Shown in pieces: positions 4,603-21,628 of a stretch of 40,425 nt of DNA. The stretch comes from Rhodospirillales bacterium (GTDB lineage: Bacteria > Pseudomonadota > Alphaproteobacteria > Rhodospirillales > Magnetospirillaceae). Every line of letters begins with the position of its first letter. Positions within the stretch are counted from its first letter, which is position 1. The notes beneath the pieces are model-generated. The model had not been told where the DNA came from. It was given only the letters and a program-made list of their open reading frames with translations, and made no database searches. The stretch spans positions 1 to 40,425 of the forward strand of contig JAATGN010000115.1 in assembly GCA_015654615.1 (NCBI GenBank), in the 5' to 3' direction. A program made the translations under genes and the position numbers.

Positions 4603-4669
4603 ATTGATATTGTGGCCAAAGTGAACAGTATCGCCTTTGAGCCCGTCACCCCATTTTTCGAGAGATGTC

Positions 4670-5965
4670 ATGGCCGTCCCCCGTTCCCCCGCCTTCGAGA
4701 CGCTGAGCCTGCATGCCGGGCAACATCCCGACCCGGCGACCGGCGCCCGCGCCGTTCCCGTCTTTGAAACGACCTCCTACGTCTTCAGCGATACCGAGCA
4801 GGCCGCCGCCCTGTTCAATCTGGAGCGGGCGGGCCATCTCTACAGCCGCATCTCGAACCCCACCGTCGCGGTGCTGGAAGAGCGGCTGGCGGCGCTCGAA
4901 GGCGGCGTCGGGGCGGTCTGCACGGCCAGCGGCATGGCGGCGATCCATCTGGCCATCGCCACCCTGCTGGGGGCCGGCGATCATATCGTCGCCTCGGCCT
5001 CGCTCTACGGCGGCACGATCAATCTGCTGGCCCATACGCTGCCCCGTTTCGGCATCCGCACCACCTTCGTCAAGCCGCGCGACCTGGACGGCCTGGCGGC
5101 GGCGATTCGGCCCGAAACCCGGCTGGTGATCGGCGAGACCATCGGCAATCCCGGCCTCGAAGTCCTCGACATTCCCCAGGTCGCCGAGATCGCCCATGCC
5201 GCCGGGGTGCCGCTGTTCATCGACAACACCTTCGCCACCCCCTATCTGTGCCGGCCCTTCGAACTGGGGGCCGATCTGGTCATGCATTCCCTGACCAAAT
5301 GGATCGGCGGGCACGGCGTGGCCCTCGGCGGCGCGGTCATCGACGGCGGCCGCTTCGACTGGCAGGCCGCCGGCAAATTCCCGACCTTGAGCGAACCCTA
5401 CGCCGGCTATCACGGGCTGGTCTTCGCCGAGCAGTTCGGTCCCGCCGCCTTCATCATGCGGGCCCGCACCGAGGGCCTGCGGGATTTCGGCGCCTGTCTG
5501 TCGCCGGCCAACGCCGCCCGGCTTCTGCAGGGCGTCGAGACGCTGGGCCTGCGCATGCAGCGCCATATCGAGAACACCCAGGCGGTGCTGGCCGCGCTGG
5601 CCGGCAACGAAGCGGTGTCCTGGCTGGTCCATCCCTCGCTGGCCGATCATCCCGACCACGCCCTGGCCGCCCGACTGCTGCCCAGGGGCGCCGGCTCGAT
5701 CATCAGCTTCGGCGTCAGGGGCGGCCGCGCCGCCGGGCGAAAATTCATCGAATCGCTGCGTCTGGCCAGCCATCTGGCCAATGTCGGCGACGCCAAGACC
5801 CTGGTCATCCACCCGGCCAGCACGACCCATCAGCAAATGGATGCCGAGCAGCTTGCCGTCGCCGGAATCGGCGAGGACATGGTGCGGCTTTCGGTGGGGC
5901 TGGAGGCGGCGTCCGACATCGCCGCCGATATTCTCCAGGCGCTCCGCGCCTCGCAGAGGGCTTGA
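4670..5965 (+). CDS. metY: O-acetylhomoserine sulfhydrylase-like PLP enzyme (MetY type)
   Basis: 431 aa, the usual length of O-acetylhomoserine aminocarboxypropyltransferase. The family is PLP-dependent and cytoplasmic, replacing the acetyl group of O-acetylhomoserine with sulfide or methanethiol to give homocysteine or methionine. Seen: the N-terminal FETLSLHAGQHPDPATGARAVP, YSRISNPT (phosphate contact), ASGMAAIHLAI, FIDNTFATPYLCRP with the cofactor Asp, and SLTKWIGGHG with the Schiff-base Lys. ASTTHQQM and VRLSVGLE close the C-terminal domain. MAVPRS was chosen over the track start 11 codons upstream because conservation begins there; the SD is weak. The stop is three bases before the next gene. 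It is the clearest sulfur-assimilation enzyme here and would capture sulfide or methanethiol released by neighbouring functions (inference). Confidence 0.88.
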   Translation: MAVPRSPAFETLSLHAGQHPDPATGARAVPVFETTSYVFSDTEQAAALFNLERAGHLYSRISNPTVAVLEERLAALEGGVGAVCTASGMAAIHLAIATLLGAGDHIVASASLYGGTINLLAHTLPRFGIRTTFVKPRDLDGLAAAIRPETRLVIGETIGNPGLEVLDIPQVAEIAHAAGVPLFIDNTFATPYLCRPFELGADLVMHSLTKWIGGHGVALGGAVIDGGRFDWQAAGKFPTLSEPYAGYHGLVFAEQFGPAAFIMRARTEGLRDFGACLSPANAARLLQGVETLGLRMQRHIENTQAVLAALAGNEAVSWLVHPSLADHPDHALAARLLPRGAGSIISFGVRGGRAAGRKFIESLRLASHLANVGDAKTLVIHPASTTHQQMDAEQLAVAGIGEDMVRLSVGLEAASDIAADILQALRASQRA

Positions 5966-8305: not shown

Positions 8306-8337
8306 GCCGGCTCGACGGGCGGCGGCCGTCAGCCGGC
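8306..8337 (-). terminator. Stem-loop at the 3' end of the Crp/Fnr gene
   Basis: GCCGGCT-C-GACGG pairs with CCGTC-AGCCGGC (12 pairs, one bulge). It overlaps the stop codon, and a CCCTTTTC stretch follows on the minus strand. Possible weak intrinsic terminator separating the regulator from the downstream dehydrogenase. Confidence 0.35.
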
Positions 8338-9066
8338 GAAACGCCGCAGCGCGTCCTCGTCGCGGATCAGGATGCGGTTGGGAGAAATTTCGATCATGCC
8401 CTGCTCGCGGAAGCGGTCGAGGGTGGTGGTCACCCACTGGCGGGTCGAGCCGACCATCTTGGCCAGATCCTCCTGGCTGAGCGTGCGGCCGATGGCGACG
8501 CCCTCCGGCCCCCGGTGGCCGTCGAGACCGGCCATCAGCAGCAGCAATTGCGCCAGCCGCTCGGCGGCCGAACGGGTGCCCAGCATATGGACCAGGGCGG
8601 AATAGCATCTTCCCTTGTGGACCAGGGCCTCGACCAGGGCCACCGCCAGGCGCGGCAGACGTTCGATCAGGCGGCGCAACTCGCGGCCCCGCACGTGCAG
8701 GACCTGGGTCGGGCGGATCGCCTGGCCGGACCACATGTGCGGGCTGCCGCCGAAGATCTCGGGACCGCCGACGAAATTGCCCGGCGACCAATAGGCCAGC
8801 GTGATCTCGCGCCCCGAGGGTCCGGTGTAATAGGTCCGCACCTGTCCGGCCAGGATGATGAAGATGCCGTCATGATGGTCGCCCTGCAGGAACACCGTGC
8901 GTCCGGCGGCGAACTGCTGGACCGACGAGACGGCGCAGACCTCGGCGTATTCCTCGTCGGTCAGGCCGGACAGCAGGTTGGGGCTGTCGCCGTCGTGGCT
9001 TCCGTCCTCGTGCAGATGCAGCGAGGGCGAAGGCTGGGCGCGGGCGCCTTTGCCGGTGGTGGTCAT
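8329..9066 (-). CDS. Crp/Fnr-family transcriptional regulator
   Basis: 245 aa. An N-terminal cyclic-nucleotide-type beta-barrel (FLQGDHHDGIFIILAGQV, about 58-75), a dimer helix, and a C-terminal winged helix (LSQEDLAKMVGSTRQWVTTTLDRF) are visible. The first ~30 residues are a low-complexity His/Ser/Asp-rich extension (SLHLHEDGSHDGDSP). It lacks the N-terminal Cys cluster of true FNR, so it is not an obvious oxygen-sensing Fe-S protein; it may sense a nucleotide, redox or heme signal. MTTTGK was chosen over the track start because GAGGAGG sits just upstream. It lies 10 bases after the ABC ATPase gene on the same strand, so it may belong to the importer operon and control it. Confidence 0.87.
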   Translation of the reverse strand: MTTTGKGARAQPSPSLHLHEDGSHDGDSPNLLSGLTDEEYAEVCAVSSVQQFAAGRTVFLQGDHHDGIFIILAGQVRTYYTGPSGREITLAYWSPGNFVGGPEIFGGSPHMWSGQAIRPTQVLHVRGRELRRLIERLPRLAVALVEALVHKGRCYSALVHMLGTRSAAERLAQLLLLMAGLDGHRGPEGVAIGRTLSQEDLAKMVGSTRQWVTTTLDRFREQGMIEISPNRILIRDEDALRRFAG

Positions 9067-9076
9067 GGGGTCCTCC

Positions 9077-9898
9077 TCAGATTCCGGCGCCATCGGCGAA
9101 TTCGAAGGCGCGCCGGCTTTCCTGCCGGATCAGTTTCAGGCATTGGCGCTTGTGCTCGGCGAAGGCCGGGTCGGCGAAAACGTCGTCGGGGCGGGGGCGC
9201 GGCAGATCGACGGTCAAATCCAGCAGGACGCGGCCCGGCGCGGCGCTCATCACCACCACCCGGTCGGACAGGAACAGCGCCTCGTCGATGTCGTGGGTGA
9301 CGAACAGCACCGTATTGCCGATCCGGCTCCACAGGCGGAGCAGGCTTTCCTGCATGATGGCGCGGGTTTGGGCGTCCAAGGCGCCGAACGGCTCGTCCAT
9401 CAGCAGGACGCTGGGATGGTTGACCAGGGCGCGGGCGATGCCGACCCGCTGGGCCATGCCGCCCGACAGGGTGGCGGGATAGCGGTCGGCCGAGGATCCC
9501 AGGCCGACCAGATCGAGATAGCGGCGGGCCAGCGCGTCGGCCTCGGCCTTTGAACGGCCCTGCATGCGGGGTCCGAAGGCGACATTGTCCCGCACGGTCT
9601 TCCAGGGGAACAGGGAATGCTGCTGGAACACCATGCCGCGTTCGGGGCCCGGGCCGGTCACGACCGCGCCGTCCACCGCCACCTGTCCGCGGCTGGGCGG
9701 AATGAAGCCGGCGACGCTGTTGAGGACGGTGGATTTGCCGCAGCCCGACGGCCCCAGCAGGCAGACGAATTCTCCCGGTTCCACCCGCAGCGAAAAATCG
9801 GCCACGGCGGCCTGGCCGCCGAAGCGGATCTCCAGCCGTTCGATGGCGACGCGGCCCCGGGTGACGCGGAGGTTTCGTCGGGCGGCGACGGCGCTCAT
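9077..9898 (-). CDS. ABC importer ATPase, SsuB/TauB/NrtD type
   Basis: 273 aa cytoplasmic ATPase of a nitrate/sulfonate/taurine-family importer. Seen: Walker A GPSGCGKST at about 54-62, Q-loop MVFQQHSLFPW, ABC signature LSGGMAQRVGIARAL, Walker B VLLMDEPFGALD, and the switch His in FVTHDIDEA. ATGA overlap with the permease stop (9895-9898) fixes the start and indicates translational coupling. Gene order is binding protein, permease, ATPase, regulator. Confidence 0.92.
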   Translation of the reverse strand: MSAVAARRNLRVTRGRVAIERLEIRFGGQAAVADFSLRVEPGEFVCLLGPSGCGKSTVLNSVAGFIPPSRGQVAVDGAVVTGPGPERGMVFQQHSLFPWKTVRDNVAFGPRMQGRSKAEADALARRYLDLVGLGSSADRYPATLSGGMAQRVGIARALVNHPSVLLMDEPFGALDAQTRAIMQESLLRLWSRIGNTVLFVTHDIDEALFLSDRVVVMSAAPGRVLLDLTVDLPRPRPDDVFADPAFAEHKRQCLKLIRQESRRAFEFADGAGI

Positions 9899-10761
9899 CG
9901 GGCGGCCTCGCGTCTGGACGAATCGGTAAGGGGGCGCCAGGGCATGACGAGCCGTCCCGCCAGGCGGATCAGGCCGCTGGACAACAGCCCCAGAACGCCG
10001 ATCAGCAGCATGCCGAGCACGATGTCGGCGTATTGCACCAGGGAATAGGCCTCCCAGGTGAAATAGCCGATGCCGAACTGGCCGGAGATCATTTCGGCGG
10101 CGATCAGCGAGACCCAGGCCACCCCCATGCCCACCGTCAGGCCGGTGAAGATGTGGGGCAGGGCGCCCGGCAGATAGACATGGCGGAACAGGGCGGCCTC
10201 GCCGGCGCCCAGGCTGCGCGAGGCCCGGATCAGGACGGGGTCGATCGCCGCCACGCCGTGCAGGGTATTGATCAGAATCGGGAAGAACGACCCCAGGAAG
10301 GTGATGAAGACGATGCTTTCTTCCGAGGTCGGCCACAGCATGATGGACATCGGAACCCAGGCGATGGCCGGGATCGGGCGCAGCACCTCGACGATCGGAT
10401 AAGCCAGGGAGCGCAGCGCGCGATAGCGGCCCATGCCCAGGCCCAGCGGGACGGCGATCAGCCCGGCCAGGGCGAAACCGGCGCCGATGCGCTGCAGGCT
10501 GACGGCGATATGCTCCAGGAAGCGGGGATCGTGGAAGGCCAGGACGGCCCGGCGCAGCACCGCCTGGGGCGTCGGCACATTGACGAAGCGGATGTGCAGG
10601 TCCAGGCGGTAGGTGGTGGCGACATGCCAGCCGGCAACGAACAGCAGCAGCGAGGCGACGCCCAGGGCCCAGGTCAGGATGGTCCTGCCGCCGCGGAACG
10701 AAAAGTGCCGGTCGGCCGCTTCGTTCGGTTGCTCCCGTTTCACCGCCATGGCGCCCGTCAT
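9895..10761 (-). CDS. ABC importer permease, SsuC/TauC type
   Basis: 288 aa inner-membrane permease with about six hydrophobic segments, beginning with ILTWALGVASLLLFVAGWHV after a short cytoplasmic N-terminus. The EAA-type loop contacting the ATPase is visible as ASRSLGAGEAALFRHVYLPGALPHIFTG, with the EAA glutamate region replaced by SLGAGE as in SsuC-like proteins. The start at 10761 follows GGGAG by eight bases and lies four bases after the binding-protein stop; MAVKRE four codons later is an alternative. It works with the flanking ATPase and NosL-fused binding protein. Confidence 0.92.
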   Translation of the reverse strand: MTGAMAVKREQPNEAADRHFSFRGGRTILTWALGVASLLLFVAGWHVATTYRLDLHIRFVNVPTPQAVLRRAVLAFHDPRFLEHIAVSLQRIGAGFALAGLIAVPLGLGMGRYRALRSLAYPIVEVLRPIPAIAWVPMSIMLWPTSEESIVFITFLGSFFPILINTLHGVAAIDPVLIRASRSLGAGEAALFRHVYLPGALPHIFTGLTVGMGVAWVSLIAAEMISGQFGIGYFTWEAYSLVQYADIVLGMLLIGVLGLLSSGLIRLAGRLVMPWRPLTDSSRREAAR

Positions 10762-10765
10762 CGGA

Positions 10766-12169
10766 TCAACTCCCGGTGCCCACGGCGGCCAGGGCCTCGG
10801 CGAAGCCGGCCACCGTGCCGCCGTTCCGCGCGGCATAGGCCTCGGCATTCTTCTTGAGCAGGAAGGGAACGGCATCGCCGCCCTTGGCCGGAATGGCGTA
10901 GAAGGCCTGGTCGGCGAACAGCTTGATGCCGAGCGCGGTGTCGAACAGATAGGCCACCTTGGCGGTCCGGCCCTTGTTCTTCAGATCGTTGAAGGCCGCC
11001 AGGGTGCATTTGGTCGAGCTGTAGGCCACGATGTCGCCGCCGTCGACCCAGATTTCGCCGGCCTTGCGGGGTTCGGTGATCGGCTTCTTGCAGAAGGGAT
11101 CGGTGCCCTGCACCTCGTAATTGGCCAGGCTGGCCAGTTGGCCGTCGTAGTCCAGCTTCAAGTCCTTGAAGGCTTGCCGAAGGTAGGTGTCGTTCACCCA
11201 TTTGGCCAGGTCGAAGTCCTTGACGCGGTCGAGCTTGCGCAGCACCTCGGCATCGTCGCCGGCCGCGGCCACCAGGGCCGGCTTGATGGTGGGATCCAGG
11301 GTCATGATGCCGCCGGGACCTAAGAAGATATAGACCACTTCCTTGTCGATCCCGGTCCATTCGGCGATCTTTTCGGCGGCCCGCTTGGGGTCGGCCTTGA
11401 CCCATTGGTCGGCTTCGATCTCGGCTTTCAGATAGGCGACGACGATTTCGGGATATTTCTCGGCGAAATCGGTGCGGACCACCACGCCGTGCCAGGTGGG
11501 AGCGCCGCTTTCGACGCCGTCGTAGATCTTGCGGGCGTAGCCCCGGAACGGCAGCAATTCGGCGAAGGGCACGAAGTCGGCGTGGGCGTCGATCTTCTTT
11601 TCCTGCAGATTGGTGGCGCCGACCTCGGGGCTCTGGCTGACCAGCTTCCAGTAATCCTGGCCCCATCCCTGGTCCTGCATGGTTTTCAAAAGCAGGCCGT
11701 GGGCGGCCGAGCCGAAGGGCACGCTGACCACCTTGCCCTTCAGGTCGGACAGTTCGTAATAGGGGCTGTCCTTGTTGACCACCAGGCCGTTGCCCGATCC
11801 ATGGATATTGTAGGCCGCCACCGAGATCAGCTGGCTCCGGCTTTCGGGATTGCCCTGGAAGGTAGAACCGTTGACCACCAGCGGATAGTCGCCCATGGCG
11901 CCGAACTGCAGCTTGTCGGCCATCATGCCGTTGGTCACCGGCGGGCCGGAGGTGAAGTTCTGCCAATCCAGCCTGACCACCAGATCGGCATATTTTCCGC
12001 TTTTCGGAAAGTATTTCTCCAGCAGCCGCAGTTCGCGGATCACCGCGCCGGTCGTCACCGTGTTGGTGGTGGTGTCCTGGGTGCCGATGCCGATGGTGAG
12101 AGTCTCCGCCTGGGCCGGCGCGGCCAGCAAAAGGGCGGCGATGGCGACGATGCCGTTACGGATGCTCAT
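10766..12169 (-). CDS. ABC substrate-binding protein fused to a C-terminal NosL-like domain
   Basis: 467 aa, about 140 longer than usual SsuA/NrtA/TauA proteins. Residues 1-21 form a Sec signal (IVAIAALLLAAPAQA). Residues 22-345 are the periplasmic binding fold (KLQFGAMGDYPLVVNG, VVSVPFGSAAHGLLLK, WHGVVVRTDFAEKYPEIV). Residues ~350-462 look NosL-like: DPFCKKPITEPRKAGEIWVD with Cys360, VAYSSTKCTLAAF with Cys388, then FYAIPAKGGDAVPFLLKKNA and AYAARNGGTVAGFAEAL, which follow the NosL pattern (C..C.M/I, DG..., F....C, Y.(V/I), PF....A..F...GG.V..F.E). NosL is a copper(I) chaperone of N2O reductase; here the usual CGMM methionines are missing, so metal binding is uncertain. No nosZ is present. Three tandem CCAYTAG motifs lie upstream. 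Substrate unknown, probably an organosulfur or related anion. Confidence 0.85.
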   Translation of the reverse strand: MSIRNGIVAIAALLLAAPAQAETLTIGIGTQDTTTNTVTTGAVIRELRLLEKYFPKSGKYADLVVRLDWQNFTSGPPVTNGMMADKLQFGAMGDYPLVVNGSTFQGNPESRSQLISVAAYNIHGSGNGLVVNKDSPYYELSDLKGKVVSVPFGSAAHGLLLKTMQDQGWGQDYWKLVSQSPEVGATNLQEKKIDAHADFVPFAELLPFRGYARKIYDGVESGAPTWHGVVVRTDFAEKYPEIVVAYLKAEIEADQWVKADPKRAAEKIAEWTGIDKEVVYIFLGPGGIMTLDPTIKPALVAAAGDDAEVLRKLDRVKDFDLAKWVNDTYLRQAFKDLKLDYDGQLASLANYEVQGTDPFCKKPITEPRKAGEIWVDGGDIVAYSSTKCTLAAFNDLKNKGRTAKVAYLFDTALGIKLFADQAFYAIPAKGGDAVPFLLKKNAEAYAARNGGTVAGFAEALAAVGTGS

Positions 12170-12660: not shown

Positions 12661-14400
12661 ATGTCCCAGACCGCGAATGCCACCCGTCAGGTGGAAACCG
12701 ACATCCTGGTGATCGGCGGCGGCACCGCCGGGCCGTTGGCCGCCATCAAGGCCAAGGAAAAAGCCCCGGCCGTGACGGTGCTGCTGCTCGACAAGGCCAA
12801 TGTCAAGCGGGCCGGCGCCATCGCCGAAGGCATGGACAGCGTCAACAACGCCGTCATTCCCGGCCATGCGACGCCCGAGCAATATGTCAAGGAAATCACC
12901 ATCGCCAATGACGGCATCGTCAATCAGAAAGCCATCATGGCCTATGCGACGCGCAGCCATGCGATGATTCGCGAGCTGGATTCCTGGGGCGTCAAATTCG
13001 AAAAGGACGCGACCGGCGACTATGCGGTGAAGAAGGTCCACCACATGGGAGCCTATGTGCTGCCGATGCCCGAAGGCCATGCCATCAAGAAGTTCATCTA
13101 CAAGCAGATCCGCAAGCTGGGGGTCGAGGTCAGCAATCGCCTGATCGCCACCCGCCTGCTGGTGGCCGCCGACGGGCGCATCGCCGGCGCCATGGCGCTC
13201 GACAGCCGCAGCGGCGATTTCGTGGTGATCCGGGCCAAGGCGGTGGTGTTGTGCACCGGCGCGGCCGGACGGCTGGGGCTGCCGGCCTCGGGTTATCTGT
13301 TCGGCACCTATGAGAATCCCTGCAATGCCGGCGACGGCTATTCCATGGCCTATCACGCCGGGGCCGAGCTGTCGGGGCTCGAATGCTTCCAGATCAATCC
13401 GCTGATCAAGGACTACAACGGCCCGGCCTGCGCCTATGTCACCGGTCCCTTCGGCGGCTTCACCGTCAATGCCAGGGGCGAGCGCTTCATCAAGAGCGAC
13501 TATTGGAGCGGCCAGATGATGCTGGAGTTCTGGCGCGAACTGGAAAGCGGCAACGGACCGGTGTTTCTCAAGCTCGACCATCTGGCCGAGGAGACCGTCA
13601 CCAGGATCGAGAACGTCCTGCATGTCACCGAACGGCCGACCCGCGGCCTGTTCCACGAGGGCCGCCATACCGATTACCGGACCGATCTGGTCGAGATGCA
13701 TATCTCGGAGATCGGCCTGTGCGGCGGCCATTCCGCCTCGGGCGTCTGGGTCGACGAGAACGCGCGGACCACGGTTCCCGGCCTCTACGCGGCCGGCGAC
13801 CTCTGCAACGTCGCCCACAATTACATGATGGGGGCCATGGTGTTCGGCATGATCGCCGGCCAGGACGCGGTGGACTACATCGAAGGCCTCGACCTGCCGG
13901 CCTTCGATCCGGCCCAGGTGGAGAGCGAGCGGAAAAGGGTGTTCGCCCCCTTGGAGCGGGCCGAAGGCTTGGACCCGACCGCCGTCGAATACAAGCTGCG
14001 GCGCATGGTCAACGACTATCTGCAGCCGCCCAAGGTGACCCGCAAGATGGAGATCGGCCTCGATCGCTTCGCCGAGATCCGCCAGGATCTGGAAGGGGTC
14101 AAGGCCGGCAACCCTCACGAACTGATGCGGGCGCTGGAGATCCACGCCATCGTCGATTGCGCCGAACTGGCGGCCCGCGCCTCGCTGTTCCGCACCGAGA
14201 GCCGCTGGGGCCTCTATCATTACCGCAGCGATTTCGAAGCCAGGAACGATGCCGAGTGGTTCTGCTTCGTCGAGATCAGGAAGGGCGCCGACGGCCGGCC
14301 GGAACTGTTCAAGCGTCCGGTCGATCCCTACATCGTGCCGATCGGCGACGACGAACGGGACGCCTATGACCGCCTGCGCATAGAGGAGGCCGCGGAGTGA
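12661..14400 (+). CDS. AprA-like FAD flavoprotein (fumarate reductase/APS reductase alpha superfamily)
   Basis: 579 aa cytoplasmic flavoprotein. N-terminal dinucleotide fold ILVIGGGTAGPLAAIKA at about 15-31, then KRAGAIAEGMDSVNN, which parallels the AprA segment SGAVAQGLSAIN; VVLCTGAAGRLG; FGGFTVNARGERFIKS; and the C-terminal FAD contact TVPGLYAAGDL. The next gene encodes an AprB-like diferredoxin, so the pair resembles adenylylsulfate reductase. Genuine dissimilatory AprA is longer (about 620-660 aa), and no sat, dsr or qmo gene is nearby, so the substrate is probably not APS. The start is set by GAGGA six bases before MSQTAN; the track start is 115 codons upstream inside repeats. First gene of a five-gene operon. 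Proposed role: two-electron reduction or oxidation of a sulfur-containing substrate (inference). Confidence 0.85.
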   Translation: MSQTANATRQVETDILVIGGGTAGPLAAIKAKEKAPAVTVLLLDKANVKRAGAIAEGMDSVNNAVIPGHATPEQYVKEITIANDGIVNQKAIMAYATRSHAMIRELDSWGVKFEKDATGDYAVKKVHHMGAYVLPMPEGHAIKKFIYKQIRKLGVEVSNRLIATRLLVAADGRIAGAMALDSRSGDFVVIRAKAVVLCTGAAGRLGLPASGYLFGTYENPCNAGDGYSMAYHAGAELSGLECFQINPLIKDYNGPACAYVTGPFGGFTVNARGERFIKSDYWSGQMMLEFWRELESGNGPVFLKLDHLAEETVTRIENVLHVTERPTRGLFHEGRHTDYRTDLVEMHISEIGLCGGHSASGVWVDENARTTVPGLYAAGDLCNVAHNYMMGAMVFGMIAGQDAVDYIEGLDLPAFDPAQVESERKRVFAPLERAEGLDPTAVEYKLRRMVNDYLQPPKVTRKMEIGLDRFAEIRQDLEGVKAGNPHELMRALEIHAIVDCAELAARASLFRTESRWGLYHYRSDFEARNDAEWFCFVEIRKGADGRPELFKRPVDPYIVPIGDDERDAYDRLRIEEAAE

Positions 14401-14627
14401 CCGTCATGCCGAAACTGAACCAGCCCTCCGTCATCATCGATCACGACAAATGCATCGCGGCCAAGGGCTGCCGGACCTGCATCGACGTCTGCCCCACCGA
14501 CATCCTGGCCCTCGACGACTCCGGCAAGGTGCACATGGCCTACGACCAGTGCTGGTACTGCCTGCCGTGCCAGCACGATTGCCCGACCAAGGCGATCACC
14601 GTGACGATCCCCTACCTGTTGCGGTGA
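14397..14627 (+). CDS. AprB-like 2[4Fe-4S] ferredoxin subunit
   Basis: 76 aa with two cluster motifs: CIAAKGCRTCIDVCP (C-x5-C-x2-C-x3-CP) and CWYCLPCQHDCP (C-x2-C-x2-C-x3-CP). The YDQCWYCLPCQ segment resembles AprB (QCWECYSC). Full AprB is about 150 aa; this lacks the C-terminal tail that wraps around AprA. GTG start at 14397 overlaps the flavoprotein stop (GTGA) with AGGAGG seven bases upstream; an ATG at 14406 is an alternative. Likely the electron-transfer subunit of the flavoprotein. Confidence 0.88.
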   Translation: MTVMPKLNQPSVIIDHDKCIAAKGCRTCIDVCPTDILALDDSGKVHMAYDQCWYCLPCQHDCPTKAITVTIPYLLR

Positions 14628-14636
14628 GGCAAGGCC

Positions 14637-15572
14637 ATGGTCTGCCCCGAAATCGCCACCCTGATCGCCGCCCTCGACGATCCCGACGCGGCCATCCGCC
14701 GGCTCGGCGTGCTGCAGGCGGCCGACGCGGCCGAGGAGCATCCCGAACTGTTCGCCCGGGCCAGCCGCGACGCCGACGCCGGAGTCCGGCTGGAGGCCGT
14801 GCGGGCGCTGGAAGGCGACGCCTCGCCGGCCGGCGTGGAGGCCCTGCTGGACCGCCTGGACGACGAGGATGCGGAGATCCGCGCCGCCGCCGGCCAAGGT
14901 TTGAGCGAGATTCTGGACGAAGCCGCCGGACCGCAGCTGCTGCGCCGCTTGGAGTCCGCCCAAGGTCCGGCCAAGGCGGCGATCCTGGCCGGACTGCGCA
15001 AGCTGCGCCTGGCCGAGGCCTTCGGGCCGGCCATGGCCGGCCTGACCGACGCCCTGGCCGCGGTGCGGCGCGAGGCGGTGGGCGTGCTGGGCTATCTGCG
15101 CGATGCCCGCGCCTTGCCGGTCCTGGCCGAACGGGTGGGGCAGGATCCCGCTGCCGAAGTGCGGCGCGCCGCCGTCGGAGCCCTGGGCTTCGGGGCCGGC
15201 GCGACGGTGCTGCCGGCGCTGCTGCTGGGCCTGCTGGACGCCGATTGGCAGACCCGCGAGGAGGCGGCGGCGAGTCTGGGGCGGCTGCGGCCGGACGGCG
15301 CCGCCGCCGGTTTGATCGCCGCTTTGGACGACGACTATTGGCAGGTGCGCCTCAAGGCGGCCAATGCCCTGGGGCGATTGCGCGAGGAACGCGCCATCCC
15401 GGTCCTGATCAGGGCGCTGTCCCATCCCATCGGCAATCTGCGGAAGGAGGCGGCCGGCGCCCTCGGGGCGATCGGTCATCGGGATGCGATTTCCGCCCTG
15501 ACCGCCGCCCTGGCCGATTCCGACGTCGAGGTCCGCAAGGTGGCCGAACGGGCCCTGGTCGGGTTGTCATGA
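14637..15572 (+). CDS. HEAT-repeat (PBS-lyase-type) protein
   Basis: 311 aa built almost entirely of ~31-residue alpha-helical HEAT repeats, about nine or ten: RLEAVRALEG, EIRAAAGQGLSEI, VRREAVGVLGYL, VRRAAVGALGFG, TREEAAASLGRL, VRLKAANALGRL, LRKEAAGALGAIG, VRKVAERALVGL. Cytoplasmic, no signal peptide. Such repeats make scaffolds or help maturation of cofactor enzymes. It starts nine bases after the ferredoxin stop and overlaps the next start by ATGA, so it is tightly coupled to the AprAB-like and membrane Fe-S proteins and probably docks or matures them. Catalysis is not expected. Confidence 0.9.
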   Translation: MVCPEIATLIAALDDPDAAIRRLGVLQAADAAEEHPELFARASRDADAGVRLEAVRALEGDASPAGVEALLDRLDDEDAEIRAAAGQGLSEILDEAAGPQLLRRLESAQGPAKAAILAGLRKLRLAEAFGPAMAGLTDALAAVRREAVGVLGYLRDARALPVLAERVGQDPAAEVRRAAVGALGFGAGATVLPALLLGLLDADWQTREEAAASLGRLRPDGAAAGLIAALDDDYWQVRLKAANALGRLREERAIPVLIRALSHPIGNLRKEAAGALGAIGHRDAISALTAALADSDVEVRKVAERALVGLS

Positions 15573-16735
15573 TCAGGGACTTCGGCGATCGCCTTTATCG
15601 CCGCCAGGACGTGGTGCGGTGGCTCCAATGGGCCGTGGTTCTGCTCTACGGCCTGCTGCTGGTCGCCCCGGTGGTCTGGCCGCGGGCCGGCGTGGCGCGT
15701 CTTACCGAGATCCTGTTCTGGGGGATCTGGTGGCCCGGCGTGATCGGCTCGATGATGCTGGTCGGGCAGTTCTGGTGCGGCGTCTTCTGCCCCGATGGAA
15801 CGGTGACCGAATTCATCAGCCGGCGCGGCCGGGGAGGCAAAGCCCCGGAATGGCTGCGCTGGGCCTGGTGGCCGCTGGTGATCTATGCGGGGCTGACCCT
15901 GCTCAGCGACGGTTTCCAGGCGCATCGCTCGGCCTGGGGCACCTTGCTGGTGGTGGGCGGCATGTCGGTGGCGGGAATGGCGGCGGGCGCCGTCTACGGC
16001 CGGGGAAAGCGGGTGTGGTGCCGGTATCTCTGCCCGGTGGCCAGCCTCTTTTCGCTGCTGTCGCGCTGCTCGATGCTGCATTTCAAGGTCGATCGCCGCC
16101 GGTGGGAGGCGGCGCCCCGCCCGGTGCCCAAGCCGGTGGATTGCCCGCTGCTGCTCGACGTCCGCCGGCTGACCAGCAACGAAAAATGCAATATGTGCGG
16201 CCGCTGCAGCGGTCATCGCGACGCCGTGGAACTGGCCTGGCGCCGGCCGGGCTCGGAAATCGAGACAATGACCGATGACGAGGTCCGCCCCTGGGACGCC
16301 GTCGGCATCTGTTACGTCCTGATCGGCCTCTCGCAGGCCGGCATCCATTGGCATGCCAGCCTGACGCAGATCCTGGCGGTCACGCTGGCCCTGGGAAGCG
16401 CCGTGGCTTTGCTGCTGGTCGCGGCGGCGTCGGGGCGGCGGCTTTTGGCGATGCGTCTCGGCTACGGGCTGATTCCCCTGGCCGGATTGGGACTGATGCT
16501 GGGCGCCGCCGAGCATTCGCTGTCGCTGCTGGCGGCGGCGGGGTTCGACGCGGCGGCGGTCCTGCCCTGGTTGCGCGGGACCGGCGTGTTGCTGGGACTG
16601 GCCTGGAGCGGCCGGCTGGGCTGGGTCCTGACCGCCGATCTGCCGCTTTTGCGCCGTCTGGGCGCCATCGCCGGTTTCGCGGCGGCCTTGGCCCCGGTGG
16701 CCGCCTGCATCCAATTCGCTCCAAGCTCTTTTTGA
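15569..16735 (+). CDS. NapH/NosR-like membrane 4Fe-4S protein
   Basis: 388 aa integral membrane protein with about eight hydrophobic segments. Two Cys-Pro signatures of the NapH/NosR/CcoG family follow transmembrane helices: FWCGVFCPDG at about 68-77 and RVWCRYLCPV at about 148-157; a third Cys group, CNMCGRCSG, lies near 207-215, with C-terminal helices after it. The family passes electrons from quinol through Fe-S clusters to a partner. Start fixed by ATGA overlap with the HEAT gene; the track ORF (14450) carries an out-of-frame N-terminal part. In this operon it probably links the quinone pool to the AprAB-like pair or the ferredoxin. Sidedness is not decided. Confidence 0.85.
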   Translation: MIRDFGDRLYRRQDVVRWLQWAVVLLYGLLLVAPVVWPRAGVARLTEILFWGIWWPGVIGSMMLVGQFWCGVFCPDGTVTEFISRRGRGGKAPEWLRWAWWPLVIYAGLTLLSDGFQAHRSAWGTLLVVGGMSVAGMAAGAVYGRGKRVWCRYLCPVASLFSLLSRCSMLHFKVDRRRWEAAPRPVPKPVDCPLLLDVRRLTSNEKCNMCGRCSGHRDAVELAWRRPGSEIETMTDDEVRPWDAVGICYVLIGLSQAGIHWHASLTQILAVTLALGSAVALLLVAAASGRRLLAMRLGYGLIPLAGLGLMLGAAEHSLSLLAAAGFDAAAVLPWLRGTGVLLGLAWSGRLGWVLTADLPLLRRLGAIAGFAAALAPVAACIQFAPSSF

Positions 16736-19029: not shown

Positions 19030-20022
19030 ATGACGTCAAGGATTCTGTGCGCCGTTCTGCTGATGATCGCCGCGATGACGGGGCCCGCCGCCGCCGAGGT
19101 GGCCGAGGCGCGGTTCGCCCGGATGACCGGATTGGGATATCTGCAGATCTATCTGCTGCAGGATCTGAAGCTGGTCGAGAAGAACGCCAAGGCGCAGGGG
19201 GTGGAGTTGACCGCCCGCTACACCACGCTCGGCCAGCCGACCGCGGTCAACGACGCCCTGCTGTCGGGCAGCGCCGATTTCGCCGCGGCCGGCATCACGC
19301 CCTTCATCACGCTGTGGGACAAGACGCGCGGCAATGTCGACGTCAGGGCGGTGGCGGCCTTGAACTCGCAGCCGGCCTTTCTCAATACGATCAATCCCAA
19401 TGTGAAATCCCTGAAGGACTTCAGCGAAAAGGACCGCATCGCCCTGCCGGCAGTGAAAGTGGCCTTTCAGGCGACGATCCTGCAGATGGCGGCCGAGCAG
19501 GCATTCGGCCAATATGACAAGCTCGACGTCCTGACGGTGGGATTGTCGCATGCCGACGCCACCAACGCGCTGCTGTCGGGCAAGAGCGAGATCACCGCCC
19601 ATTTCACCAGCCCGCCCTACCAGTATCAGCAATTGGAGGACCCCAAGGTCCATCGCGTGCTGTCGTCCTATGACGTGACCGGCGGGCCCGCCACCTTCAG
19701 CGGCCTGTGGGCGACCACCCGTTTCCACGACGACAATCCCAAGGTGTTCAAGGTGGTGCTGGCGGCCCTCGATGAAGCCAACGCCATCATCCGCAACGAG
19801 CCGGCCAAAGCGGCCGAAATCTTCGTGCGGCTGGAGAATTCCAAGCTGACGGCGGCCCAGGTCGAGACCCTGCTCAAGGACCCCGACATCCAATTCACCA
19901 TTGCGCCGCAGAACATTACCAAATACACCGCTTTCATGGCGCGCGTCGGCACCATCAAAAAGGCGCCGGACAGTTGGAAAGACCTGTTCTTTTCCGACAT
20001 CGACCACTTGCAGGGGAGCTGA
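19030..20022 (+). CDS. Orphan ABC substrate-binding protein, SsuA/TauA/THI5-like
   Basis: 330 aa. Sec signal peptide MTSRILCAVLLMIAAMTG ending near AAA at ~23. The binding fold begins FARMTGLGYLQIYLLQDLKLVE and contains DALLSGSADFAAAGITPF, typical of sulfonate/taurine-type binding proteins, and TFSGLWATTRFHDDNPKVFK. No permease or ATPase gene is adjacent, so it may feed one of the two importers in the window. It is followed four bases later by the rhodanese gene, pointing to a sulfur-containing ligand (inference). Confidence 0.88.
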   Translation: MTSRILCAVLLMIAAMTGPAAAEVAEARFARMTGLGYLQIYLLQDLKLVEKNAKAQGVELTARYTTLGQPTAVNDALLSGSADFAAAGITPFITLWDKTRGNVDVRAVAALNSQPAFLNTINPNVKSLKDFSEKDRIALPAVKVAFQATILQMAAEQAFGQYDKLDVLTVGLSHADATNALLSGKSEITAHFTSPPYQYQQLEDPKVHRVLSSYDVTGGPATFSGLWATTRFHDDNPKVFKVVLAALDEANAIIRNEPAKAAEIFVRLENSKLTAAQVETLLKDPDIQFTIAPQNITKYTAFMARVGTIKKAPDSWKDLFFSDIDHLQGS

Positions 20023-20026
20023 AGCG

Positions 20027-21628
20027 ATGGGCGCGGGATCGGGACGGATTGCCGCCGACGCGGTGCGGGCCCGTCTGAAGGCGGGCGACGAACTGGCCTT
20101 TCTCGATGTGCGCGAGGAGGGCCCCTACAGTCGCGCCCAGCCGCTGTTCGCCGTCAATCTGCCCTTGAGCCGGTTCGAGCAGGACGTCGCGCGGCTGCTT
20201 CCCAGGCCGACCGTTCCCATCCTGCTGTTCGACGGCGGCGAGGGCCTGGCCCTGCCGGCCAAGCGGCTGCTGGCCGCGTTGGGCTATCACGATGCGACGG
20301 AGGTCGCCGGCGGCCTGGAGGGATGGCAGGCGGCGGGCGGCGCGCTGTTTCGCGACGTCAACGTGCCCAGCAAGGCCTTCGGCGAATGGGTCGAGACCCA
20401 TCGCCGCACGCCGATGATCGAGGCCGAGGACCTGCACGACCTGCAGCGCCGGCGCGCCGACGTCGTCGTCCTCGATTGCCGGCCGTTTCACGAATATCAC
20501 CGCATGGCCGTGCCGGGGGCCGTCAATTGCCCGGGGGCCGAGCTGGTGCTGCGGGCCGGCGGGCAGATCCGCTCGCCCGACACGCTGGTGGTGGTCAGCT
20601 GCGCCGGCCGCACCCGCTCGATCATCGGCGCCCAGTCGCTGATCAACGCCGGCCTGCCCAATCCGGTGCGGGCCTTGCGCAACGGAACCATCGGCTGGCA
20701 TCTGGCCGGCCTGTCGCTGGAACTGGGGGCCGACCGCCGGGCCGGAATTCCCGCCGCCGACAGGCTGGCCTGGGCCCGCCAGGCGGCGGCGGACGTCGCT
20801 TCGCGGGCCGGCGTGCAGGTGATCACCGCCGACTCCCTGGCTCGTTTCGAGCGCGAGGCCGAGGCGCGGACCCTGTTCCGTTTCGACGTCCGCAGTCCCG
20901 AGGAGCATGCGGCCGGCCATGCCGGCGGATTCTTCAACGCTCCCGGCGGTCAACTGATCCAGGCCACCGACGAATATGTCGGCATCCGCGGGGCCCGCAT
21001 CGTGCTGGCCGACGACGACGGGGTCCGCGCCCTGATGACGGCGTCCTGGCTGCGGCAGATGGGCTGGCGCGACGTCTTCGTCCTGGCCGATTCCCTGGCG
21101 GATCGCCTCGACGGGACGGGCGCGTGGCGGCCGGCGCCGCCCGCCCCGGAGCCGGCGGCGCCGGAGGTTTCGGCCGAGGCGCTGTCCGTGCTGCTGCGGA
21201 ACGACCGGGCCGTGGTGGCCGACCTGGCGCCCAGTCCGGCGCATGCGGCCGGCCACATCCCGGGCGCCCGTTTCCTGTTGCGCTCGCGTCTCGAGAGCGA
21301 TCTGCGACGATGCGGCGCGGGCGATCGGACATTGGTCCTGACCTCGCCGGACGGCCGGCTGGCCCGCCATGTCCGGCCGGACGCGGCGGCGCTGGCCGAT
21401 CGGCGGCCGCTGGCGGTGCTGACCGGCGGCACCGCGGCCTGGCAGCAGGCCGGATTACCGCTCGAGACCGGCATCGAGGCGCCGCTGTCGCCGCCGGACG
21501 ACGTCTATAAGCGGCCCTATGAAGGAATCGACAACGCCGACGAATTCATGCGGGCCTATATCGATTGGGAATTGCAGCTGGTCGCGCAGATCCGCCAGGA
21601 CGGCACGGCGCGCTTCGCACCGATTTAG
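20027..21628 (+). CDS. Four-domain rhodanese-like sulfurtransferase, one active Cys
   Basis: 533 aa, cytoplasmic. Four rhodanese modules: residues ~5-108 (LAFLDVREEGPYSRA), ~128-235 (VVLDCRPFHEYHRMAVPGA), ~270-365 (FRFDVRSPEEHAAGHAGG) and ~385-480 (VVADLAPSPAHAAGHIPGA). Only module 2 has the active loop SCAGRTRS with Cys192; the others have FDGGEG, ADDDGV and TSPDGR where Cys is expected. It would carry persulfide sulfur from thiosulfate, mercaptopyruvate or a similar donor to an acceptor. The start follows GGGGAG by eight bases; the track ORF starts inside the upstream gene. This architecture is known in proteobacteria, often near sulfur genes. Coupling to a binding protein supports a sulfur-acquisition role. 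Confidence 0.92.
   Translation: MGAGSGRIAADAVRARLKAGDELAFLDVREEGPYSRAQPLFAVNLPLSRFEQDVARLLPRPTVPILLFDGGEGLALPAKRLLAALGYHDATEVAGGLEGWQAAGGALFRDVNVPSKAFGEWVETHRRTPMIEAEDLHDLQRRRADVVVLDCRPFHEYHRMAVPGAVNCPGAELVLRAGGQIRSPDTLVVVSCAGRTRSIIGAQSLINAGLPNPVRALRNGTIGWHLAGLSLELGADRRAGIPAADRLAWARQAAADVASRAGVQVITADSLARFEREAEARTLFRFDVRSPEEHAAGHAGGFFNAPGGQLIQATDEYVGIRGARIVLADDDGVRALMTASWLRQMGWRDVFVLADSLADRLDGTGAWRPAPPAPEPAAPEVSAEALSVLLRNDRAVVADLAPSPAHAAGHIPGARFLLRSRLESDLRRCGAGDRTLVLTSPDGRLARHVRPDAAALADRRPLAVLTGGTAAWQQAGLPLETGIEAPLSPPDDVYKRPYEGIDNADEFMRAYIDWELQLVAQIRQDGTARFAPI

What the first reader, a model, noticed from the sequence alone, without database searches (positions are those of the whole stretch)
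10766..12169. ABC binding protein carrying a NosL-like domain
The 467 aa SsuA/NrtA-type binding protein has about 115 extra C-terminal residues that match the order of NosL features: Cys360 in DPFCKKPITEP, DGGDIVAYSSTKC with Cys388, FYAIPAKGG, PFLLKKNAEAYAA and GGTVAGF. NosL is known as a copper chaperone of N2O reductase; here there is no nosZ. A binding protein that also presents a NosL-like module to the periplasm suggests metal-assisted capture of a sulfur or other soft ligand. I do not recall such a fusion being described.
Basis: partly seen in the sequence, partly recalled or inferred. Interest (0 to 1): 0.8.

Follow-up and report, generated by a model that had tools for sequence, protein, structure and literature searches.

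The report
Sulfonate importer protein with NosL domain
A periplasmic protein that probably captures sulfur-containing organic acids carries an extra domain with the fold of NosL, a copper chaperone from nitrous-oxide respiration; this unnoticed fusion is widespread in bacteria, but the copper-binding residues of NosL are mostly gone, so the domain has probably taken on another job.

Summary
The ORF at 10766-12169 (- strand, 467 aa) is an SsuA/TauA-type binding protein whose last ~110 residues are a NosL domain. Evidence: Pfam NosL above its cut-off for the domain alone, hhalign to stand-alone NosL E 6.5e-13, and a confident AlphaFold model whose best PDB match is NosL 7og7 (TM 0.70). The fusion is fixed in a subfamily found in Proteobacteria, Cyanobacteria and Actinobacteria, which databases name only "ABC transporter substrate-binding protein". 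It travels with a permease, an ATPase, an AprA-like flavoprotein, a two-cluster ferredoxin and a HEAT-repeat protein, resembling the arylsulfonate-desulfurization asf cluster.

The metal-capture idea is not supported. The three Met residues invariant in stand-alone NosL are absent. Only the CXM Cys (Cys360) remains, joined by a new Cys388. The two are present together (93 of 136) or absent together (43), never singly; a whole sister clade lacks both. The pocket keeps sulfonate-contacting residues of TauA/SsuA. Best reading: a sulfonate importer's binding protein with a repurposed NosL-fold docking or stabilising domain, whose Cys pair most likely forms a disulfide. A Cu(I) or thiol role in the Cys-bearing clade is untested and not excluded.

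The parts
10766..12169 (-). Binding protein, 467 aa: signal peptide (about residues 1-21), SsuA/TauA-type binding domain (about 22-340), C-terminal NosL-fold domain (about 355-463)
10766..11131 (-). Codons 347-467: NosL-fold domain with the invariant pair Cys360 and Cys388
9895..10761 (-). ABC permease (PF00528); start at ATG about 10761 inferred, directly after the binding-protein stop
   Evidence: 56 of 56 large related loci
9077..9898 (-). ABC ATPase (PF00005); start inferred
   Evidence: 56 of 56
8329..9093 (-). Crp/Fnr-type regulator; found in 24 of 56 large related loci, GntR/UTRA types in most others
12661..14400 (+). AprA-like FAD protein (NCBIfam NF006131, 1059.6 bits vs cut-off 587), divergently transcribed; the position of AprA Arg265 is Leu, invariant in 68 homologues
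14397..14627 (+). Ferredoxin with two [4Fe-4S] motifs (CIAAKGCRTCIDVC / CWYCLPCQHDC)
14637..15572 (+). HEAT-repeat protein; matches the C-terminal part of the flavoprotein-HEAT fusion family PRK13800

Best explanation
The protein is the periplasmic binding component of an ABC importer for a sulfonate-type organosulfur anion. Its operon also encodes an AprA-like flavoprotein, a two-cluster ferredoxin and a HEAT protein that probably release the sulfur inside the cell. The SsuA-type cleft binds the ligand: sulfonate head held by Gln31 and main-chain NH groups, with His227 replacing the taurine-amine ligand. The C-terminal NosL-fold domain packs on the binding protein and acts as a structural or docking module, for example for lobe closure or contact with the permease. 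It is not a copper chaperone. In the window's clade Cys360 and Cys388 most likely form a disulfide in the periplasm. Shown: fold, fusion, conservation, gene company, loss of the Met residues conserved in stand-alone NosL, joint gain or loss of the Cys pair. Inferred: substrate, docking role, disulfide.
For: Domain identity. Fixed fusion: in 199 genomes of one family, all 59 close binding-protein matches (E <= 7.3e-128) carry the domain, and the next matches, ordinary SsuA-like proteins (E 1.5e-33 and weaker, nearly all in 328-386 aa frames), lie in a clearly separate score range. SBP fold nearest TauA/SsuA. TauA sulfonate contacts Gly61 and Gly79 align with G75 and G93; Gln30 corresponds to the invariant Q31 by motif. 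TauA Asp205 and Glu106 become His227 and Asn127. H157 and D94 are shared with E. coli SsuA. Operon conserved: permease and ATPase 56/56, flavoprotein, ferredoxin and HEAT 50/56 each, ferredoxin-NADP reductase and DUF971 43/56 each. Sulfur genes (an FMN-dependent monooxygenase, SsuA proteins, an arylsulfatase) lie beside it in Cupriavidus, Methylobacterium and Gordonia. Met residues of NosL lost. Cys pair 93 both, 43 neither, 0 single, at least 3 joint changes on the tree. Full-length pTM 0.88 suggests a defined packing of the two parts.
Against: No ligand, metal or redox state was measured. The distance between Cys360 and Cys388 could not be read from the model, so disulfide and two-thiolate metal sites are not distinguished. 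Retention of the CXM Cys is what a residual Cu(I) site would also show. The substrate is inferred from homology and neighbours only. The SsuA_fam score is below the NCBI cut-off, so the exact substrate class is open.
Confidence: 0.55

Rival explanations
1. The Cys-bearing NosL domain binds Cu(I) or another soft metal through Cys360 and Cys388 and uses it to gate uptake or to bring a metal along, so that sulfur import responds to metal status.
For: Cys360 sits on the Cys of the NosL CXM motif, the residue thought to bind Cu(I) in NosL (PMC6530538). Both Cys invariant in 81 of 81 aligned close relatives, the window included.
Against: The CXM Met and the two other Met invariant in the stand-alone NosL set are lost. 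The sister clade works without the Cys. No copper genes recur among the neighbours.
Confidence: 0.2
2. The Cys pair is a redox or covalent thiol site that reacts with the sulfur compound itself (for example a thiosulfonate or disulfide) before or during uptake.
For: Paired gain and loss of the two Cys; sulfur-related gene company.
Against: No thiol-disulfide partner gene is conserved in the operon; the cleft looks like an ordinary sulfonate site.
Confidence: 0.1
3. The importer serves a substrate other than sulfonates, such as a metal complex or an organometal, as in the selenocysteine-assisted organometal (SAO) systems that pair an ABC importer with a MerB-like protein.
For: NosL resembles MerB in fold (MerB2 is the sixth hit). 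A weak SaoX match (20 bits).
Against: SaoX is far below its cut-off (20 vs 300 bits); TauA/SsuA are much closer; no other SAO component was seen among the recurrent neighbours.
Confidence: 0.08

Closest known systems
NosL copper chaperone (PF05573; PDB 7og7, 2hpu, NosDFYL)
   Same: Same double beta-beta-alpha-beta fold, profile match over most of the domain, the CXM Cys kept at Cys360
   Different: Fused to a binding protein instead of being a lipoprotein; the three Met invariant in the stand-alone set are missing; no NosZ in the genome
SsuA / TauA sulfonate-binding proteins
   Same: Same two-lobed fold, sulfonate-contacting Gln and Gly positions, His and Asp shared with E. coli SsuA
   Different: About 115 extra C-terminal residues; His227 in place of TauA Asp205; below the NCBI cut-off for SsuA_fam
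asfRABC aromatic desulfonation cluster of Pseudomonas putida S-313 (reviewed in PMC4267179)
   Same: Binding protein, ABC transporter, reductase and ferredoxin in one cluster; overlapping host genera (Variovorax, Polaromonas, Hydrogenophaga, Cupriavidus)
AprBA / PAPS reductase (8a8o) for the neighbouring flavoprotein and ferredoxin
   Same: Flavoprotein closest in the PDB to the archaeal PAPS reductase alpha subunit, plus a two-cluster ferredoxin
   Different: Arg265 of AprA replaced by invariant Leu; far below the AprA cut-off

Membership tests
NosL (PF05573) | Profile match above the curated cut-off | tested here: met
   Domain alone 24.7 bits vs 24, only just above; homologues up to 34.4. 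Within the full-length protein it scores 19.4, below the cut-off.
NosL (PF05573) | NosL fold | tested here: met
   Best PDB matches are NosL, 7og7 E 1.5e-5, TM 0.70
NosL (PF05573) | CXM motif and other conserved Met residues (Cu(I) site) | tested here: not met
   Cys kept, Met residues absent
NosL (PF05573) | Lipoprotein serving nitrous oxide reductase | tested here: not met
   Fused to a binding protein; no NosZ in the assembly
NosL (PF05573) | High-affinity Cu(I) binding | not testable with these tools
   Needs purified protein
SsuA/TauA sulfonate-binding proteins | Fold and sequence similarity | tested here: met
   TauA and SsuA are the best matches by sequence and fold
SsuA/TauA sulfonate-binding proteins | NCBI SsuA_fam curated cut-off | tested here: not met
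   122.5 vs 163.5 bits
SsuA/TauA sulfonate-binding proteins | Sulfonate-contact residues | tested here: met
   G75 and G93 align with TauA Gly61 and Gly79; Q31 with Gln30 by motif only
SsuA/TauA sulfonate-binding proteins | Binds a sulfonate | not testable with these tools
   Needs a binding assay
asfRABC cluster | Reductase, ferredoxin, binding protein and ABC transporter together | tested here: met
   Window and 50 of 56 large loci; definition from PMC4267179
asfRABC cluster | LysR regulator AsfR | tested here: not met
   Crp-type here, GntR elsewhere
asfRABC cluster | Sequence identity with S-313 AsfA/AsfC | not tested
   Reference sequences not held
SAO system (SaoX) | SaoX profile cut-off | tested here: not met
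   20 vs 300 bits
APS reductase AprA (neighbouring flavoprotein) | AprA cut-off and Arg265 | tested here: not met
   176 vs 641.75 bits; Leu at Arg265 in 68 of 68

The most novel reading that the evidence does not exclude
In the Cys-bearing clade the NosL-fold domain is a working Cu(I) or redox-thiol module on an ABC binding protein, so that uptake of organic sulfur is coupled to copper or redox state in the periplasm: a new kind of binding-protein control.
Probability: 0.15. Interest if true: 0.75.

Novelty: new variant of a known kind. Interest (0 to 1): 0.5.

Why it matters
It identifies a binding-protein subfamily across at least three phyla whose C-terminal domain had gone unnamed in the annotated records seen here. 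It shows the NosL fold outside nitrous-oxide respiration and largely stripped of its metal ligands, which opens the question of what the fold does when it is not carrying copper. It also outlines a conserved gene set for organic sulfur use (importer, AprA-like flavoprotein, ferredoxin, HEAT protein, often a ferredoxin reductase and DUF971) whose chemistry could be tested directly. Release of sulfur from soil sulfonates matters for plant sulfur supply.

Tried and rejected
A chance or artefactual motif match was rejected: many independent profile and fold tests agree.

A domain present only in this genome, or a mis-assembly, was rejected: 80 relatives with near full-length coverage and the fusion in 59 of 59 close matches of another family.

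A His-rich metal pocket in the binding lobe (H157, H196, H227) was considered. It was dropped because H157 and D94 are shared with E. coli SsuA and H227 sits at TauA Asp205.

An SAO system was rejected on the SaoX cut-off.

Literature searches for NosL fusions, NosL domains and AsfC found no description. The Haft and Gwadz paper on SAO is not held.

The whole-genome Pfam NosL search found nothing, not even this fused domain, so it is weak evidence for the absence of a separate NosL.

The class-wide search with the long profile scored only four candidates per genome and undercounts.

Full report
What is there. The N-terminal 340 residues are an SsuA/TauA-type binding protein (TIGR01728 E 1.9e-35; TauA E 4e-15; full-length model pLDDT 88, pTM 0.88, best PDB matches TauA and SsuA).

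The C-terminal domain is NosL. Alone it scores 24.7 bits against Pfam NosL (cut-off 24); relatives score up to 34.4 bits. A profile of 40 relatives hits NosL 7og7 (E 3.7e-4), stand-alone nosL genes, and aligns to them at probability 97.9, E 6.5e-13. The AlphaFold domain model (pLDDT 89, pTM 0.84) is closest to NosL structures, then to MerB2.

How widespread. Eighty relatives with near full-length coverage at 60-75% identity were returned from genome contigs of mainly Alpha- and Betaproteobacteria, with some labelled Gammaproteobacteria. A second clade at about 45% identity occurs in Cupriavidus, Paraburkholderia, rhizobia, Acinetobacter and cyanobacteria, and more distant members in Actinobacteria. 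Annotated records call it only an ABC transporter (in one, nitrate ABC transporter) substrate-binding protein. In 199 genomes of one family, 59 have a binding-protein match at E 7.3e-128 or better and the same 59 have the NosL domain; the next matches start at E 1.5e-33, nearly all in 328-386 aa frames too short for the fusion. The fusion is therefore a fixed trait of this subfamily.

Is the metal site there? Literature places Cu(I) in NosL on the Cys of a CXM motif, probably with its Met, and notes one further absolutely conserved Met (PMC6530538). In six stand-alone NosL proteins fetched here three Met are invariant. In the fusion the Cys aligns with Cys360, but position 362 is mostly Lys, Thr, Val or Arg, never commonly Met, and the other two Met are missing together with shortened loops. 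Cys388 lies at a position that varies in NosL. Across 136 family members 93 have both Cys, 43 neither and none only one. On a tree of the binding part that excludes these columns the pair changed at least three times, two of which strongly supported branches require. Such behaviour fits a disulfide or a two-thiolate site; it does not tell them apart. Since a whole clade with the same operon lacks the pair, the domain must have a role that does not need it.

The ligand. TauA holds the sulfonate with Gln30 and main-chain NH of Gly61, Gly79 and Thr132, and the amine with Glu106, Thr132 and Asp205 (PMC6906117). Using the alignment, Gly61 and Gly79 correspond to G75 and G93, Glu106 to N127 and Asp205 to the invariant H227; Gln30 lies before that alignment and is matched to invariant Q31 by motif. 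D94 and H157 are shared with E. coli SsuA. This points to a sulfonate-like anion without a taurine amine.

The company. Permease and ATPase are next to it in 56 of 56 large loci, an AprA-like flavoprotein, a ferredoxin with two [4Fe-4S] motifs and a HEAT protein in 50 of 56 each, ferredoxin-NADP reductase in 43 and DUF971 in 43. The flavoprotein is closest in the PDB to archaeal PAPS reductase, but the AprA Arg265 position is Leu in 68 of 68, so it should act on another substrate. The composition resembles asfRABC, needed for aromatic desulfonation in P. putida S-313 (PMC4267179), and several host genera coincide. The regulator differs (Crp or GntR, not LysR), and I could not compare sequences. 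No SsuD was found in the window's genome, so sulfur release may rest on the flavoprotein; this is inference.

Judgement. Observation confirmed; metal-assisted capture not supported. The most likely reading is a sulfonate importer's binding protein with a repurposed NosL-fold domain. The domain's job (docking or stabilising) is the weakest step and rests on elimination plus the confident full-length model.

Noticed in passing
window 15569-16735 (+): A NapH/NosR-like membrane polyferredoxin (Fer4_5) follows the HEAT gene; none of the 80 related loci has it. The window lacks the ferredoxin-NADP reductase found in most of them, so electrons may enter from quinol instead.
   Followed up: partly
window 19030-20022 (+) and about 20029-21628 (+): A second SsuA-type binding protein is followed by a protein with four rhodanese domains: more sulfur genes in the same island.
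   Followed up: no
window 4637-5965 (+): A Cys/Met-metabolism PLP enzyme of O-acetylhomoserine sulfhydrylase type lies near an AMP-ligase and a 3-hydroxyacyl-CoA dehydrogenase.
   Followed up: no
L124:8797-11478: In Tsukamurella the neighbouring flavoprotein is 893 aa, fitting the flavoprotein-HEAT fusion family PRK13800, which links the separate HEAT gene of the window to the flavoprotein.
   Followed up: partly
window 12661-14400 (+): AprA-like flavoprotein family (PRK08275) with a strictly conserved ECxQxNPLIKDYNGPxCAYV segment (x varies) and no Arg265: probably a distinct, uncharacterised activity.
   Followed up: partly
plasmid collection hits H32, H33, H36, H38: Three Acinetobacter baumannii 'plasmid' records of 3.7-4.1 Mb and an 11.9 Mb Nonomuraea 'plasmid' are probably chromosomes filed as plasmids.
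   Followed up: no
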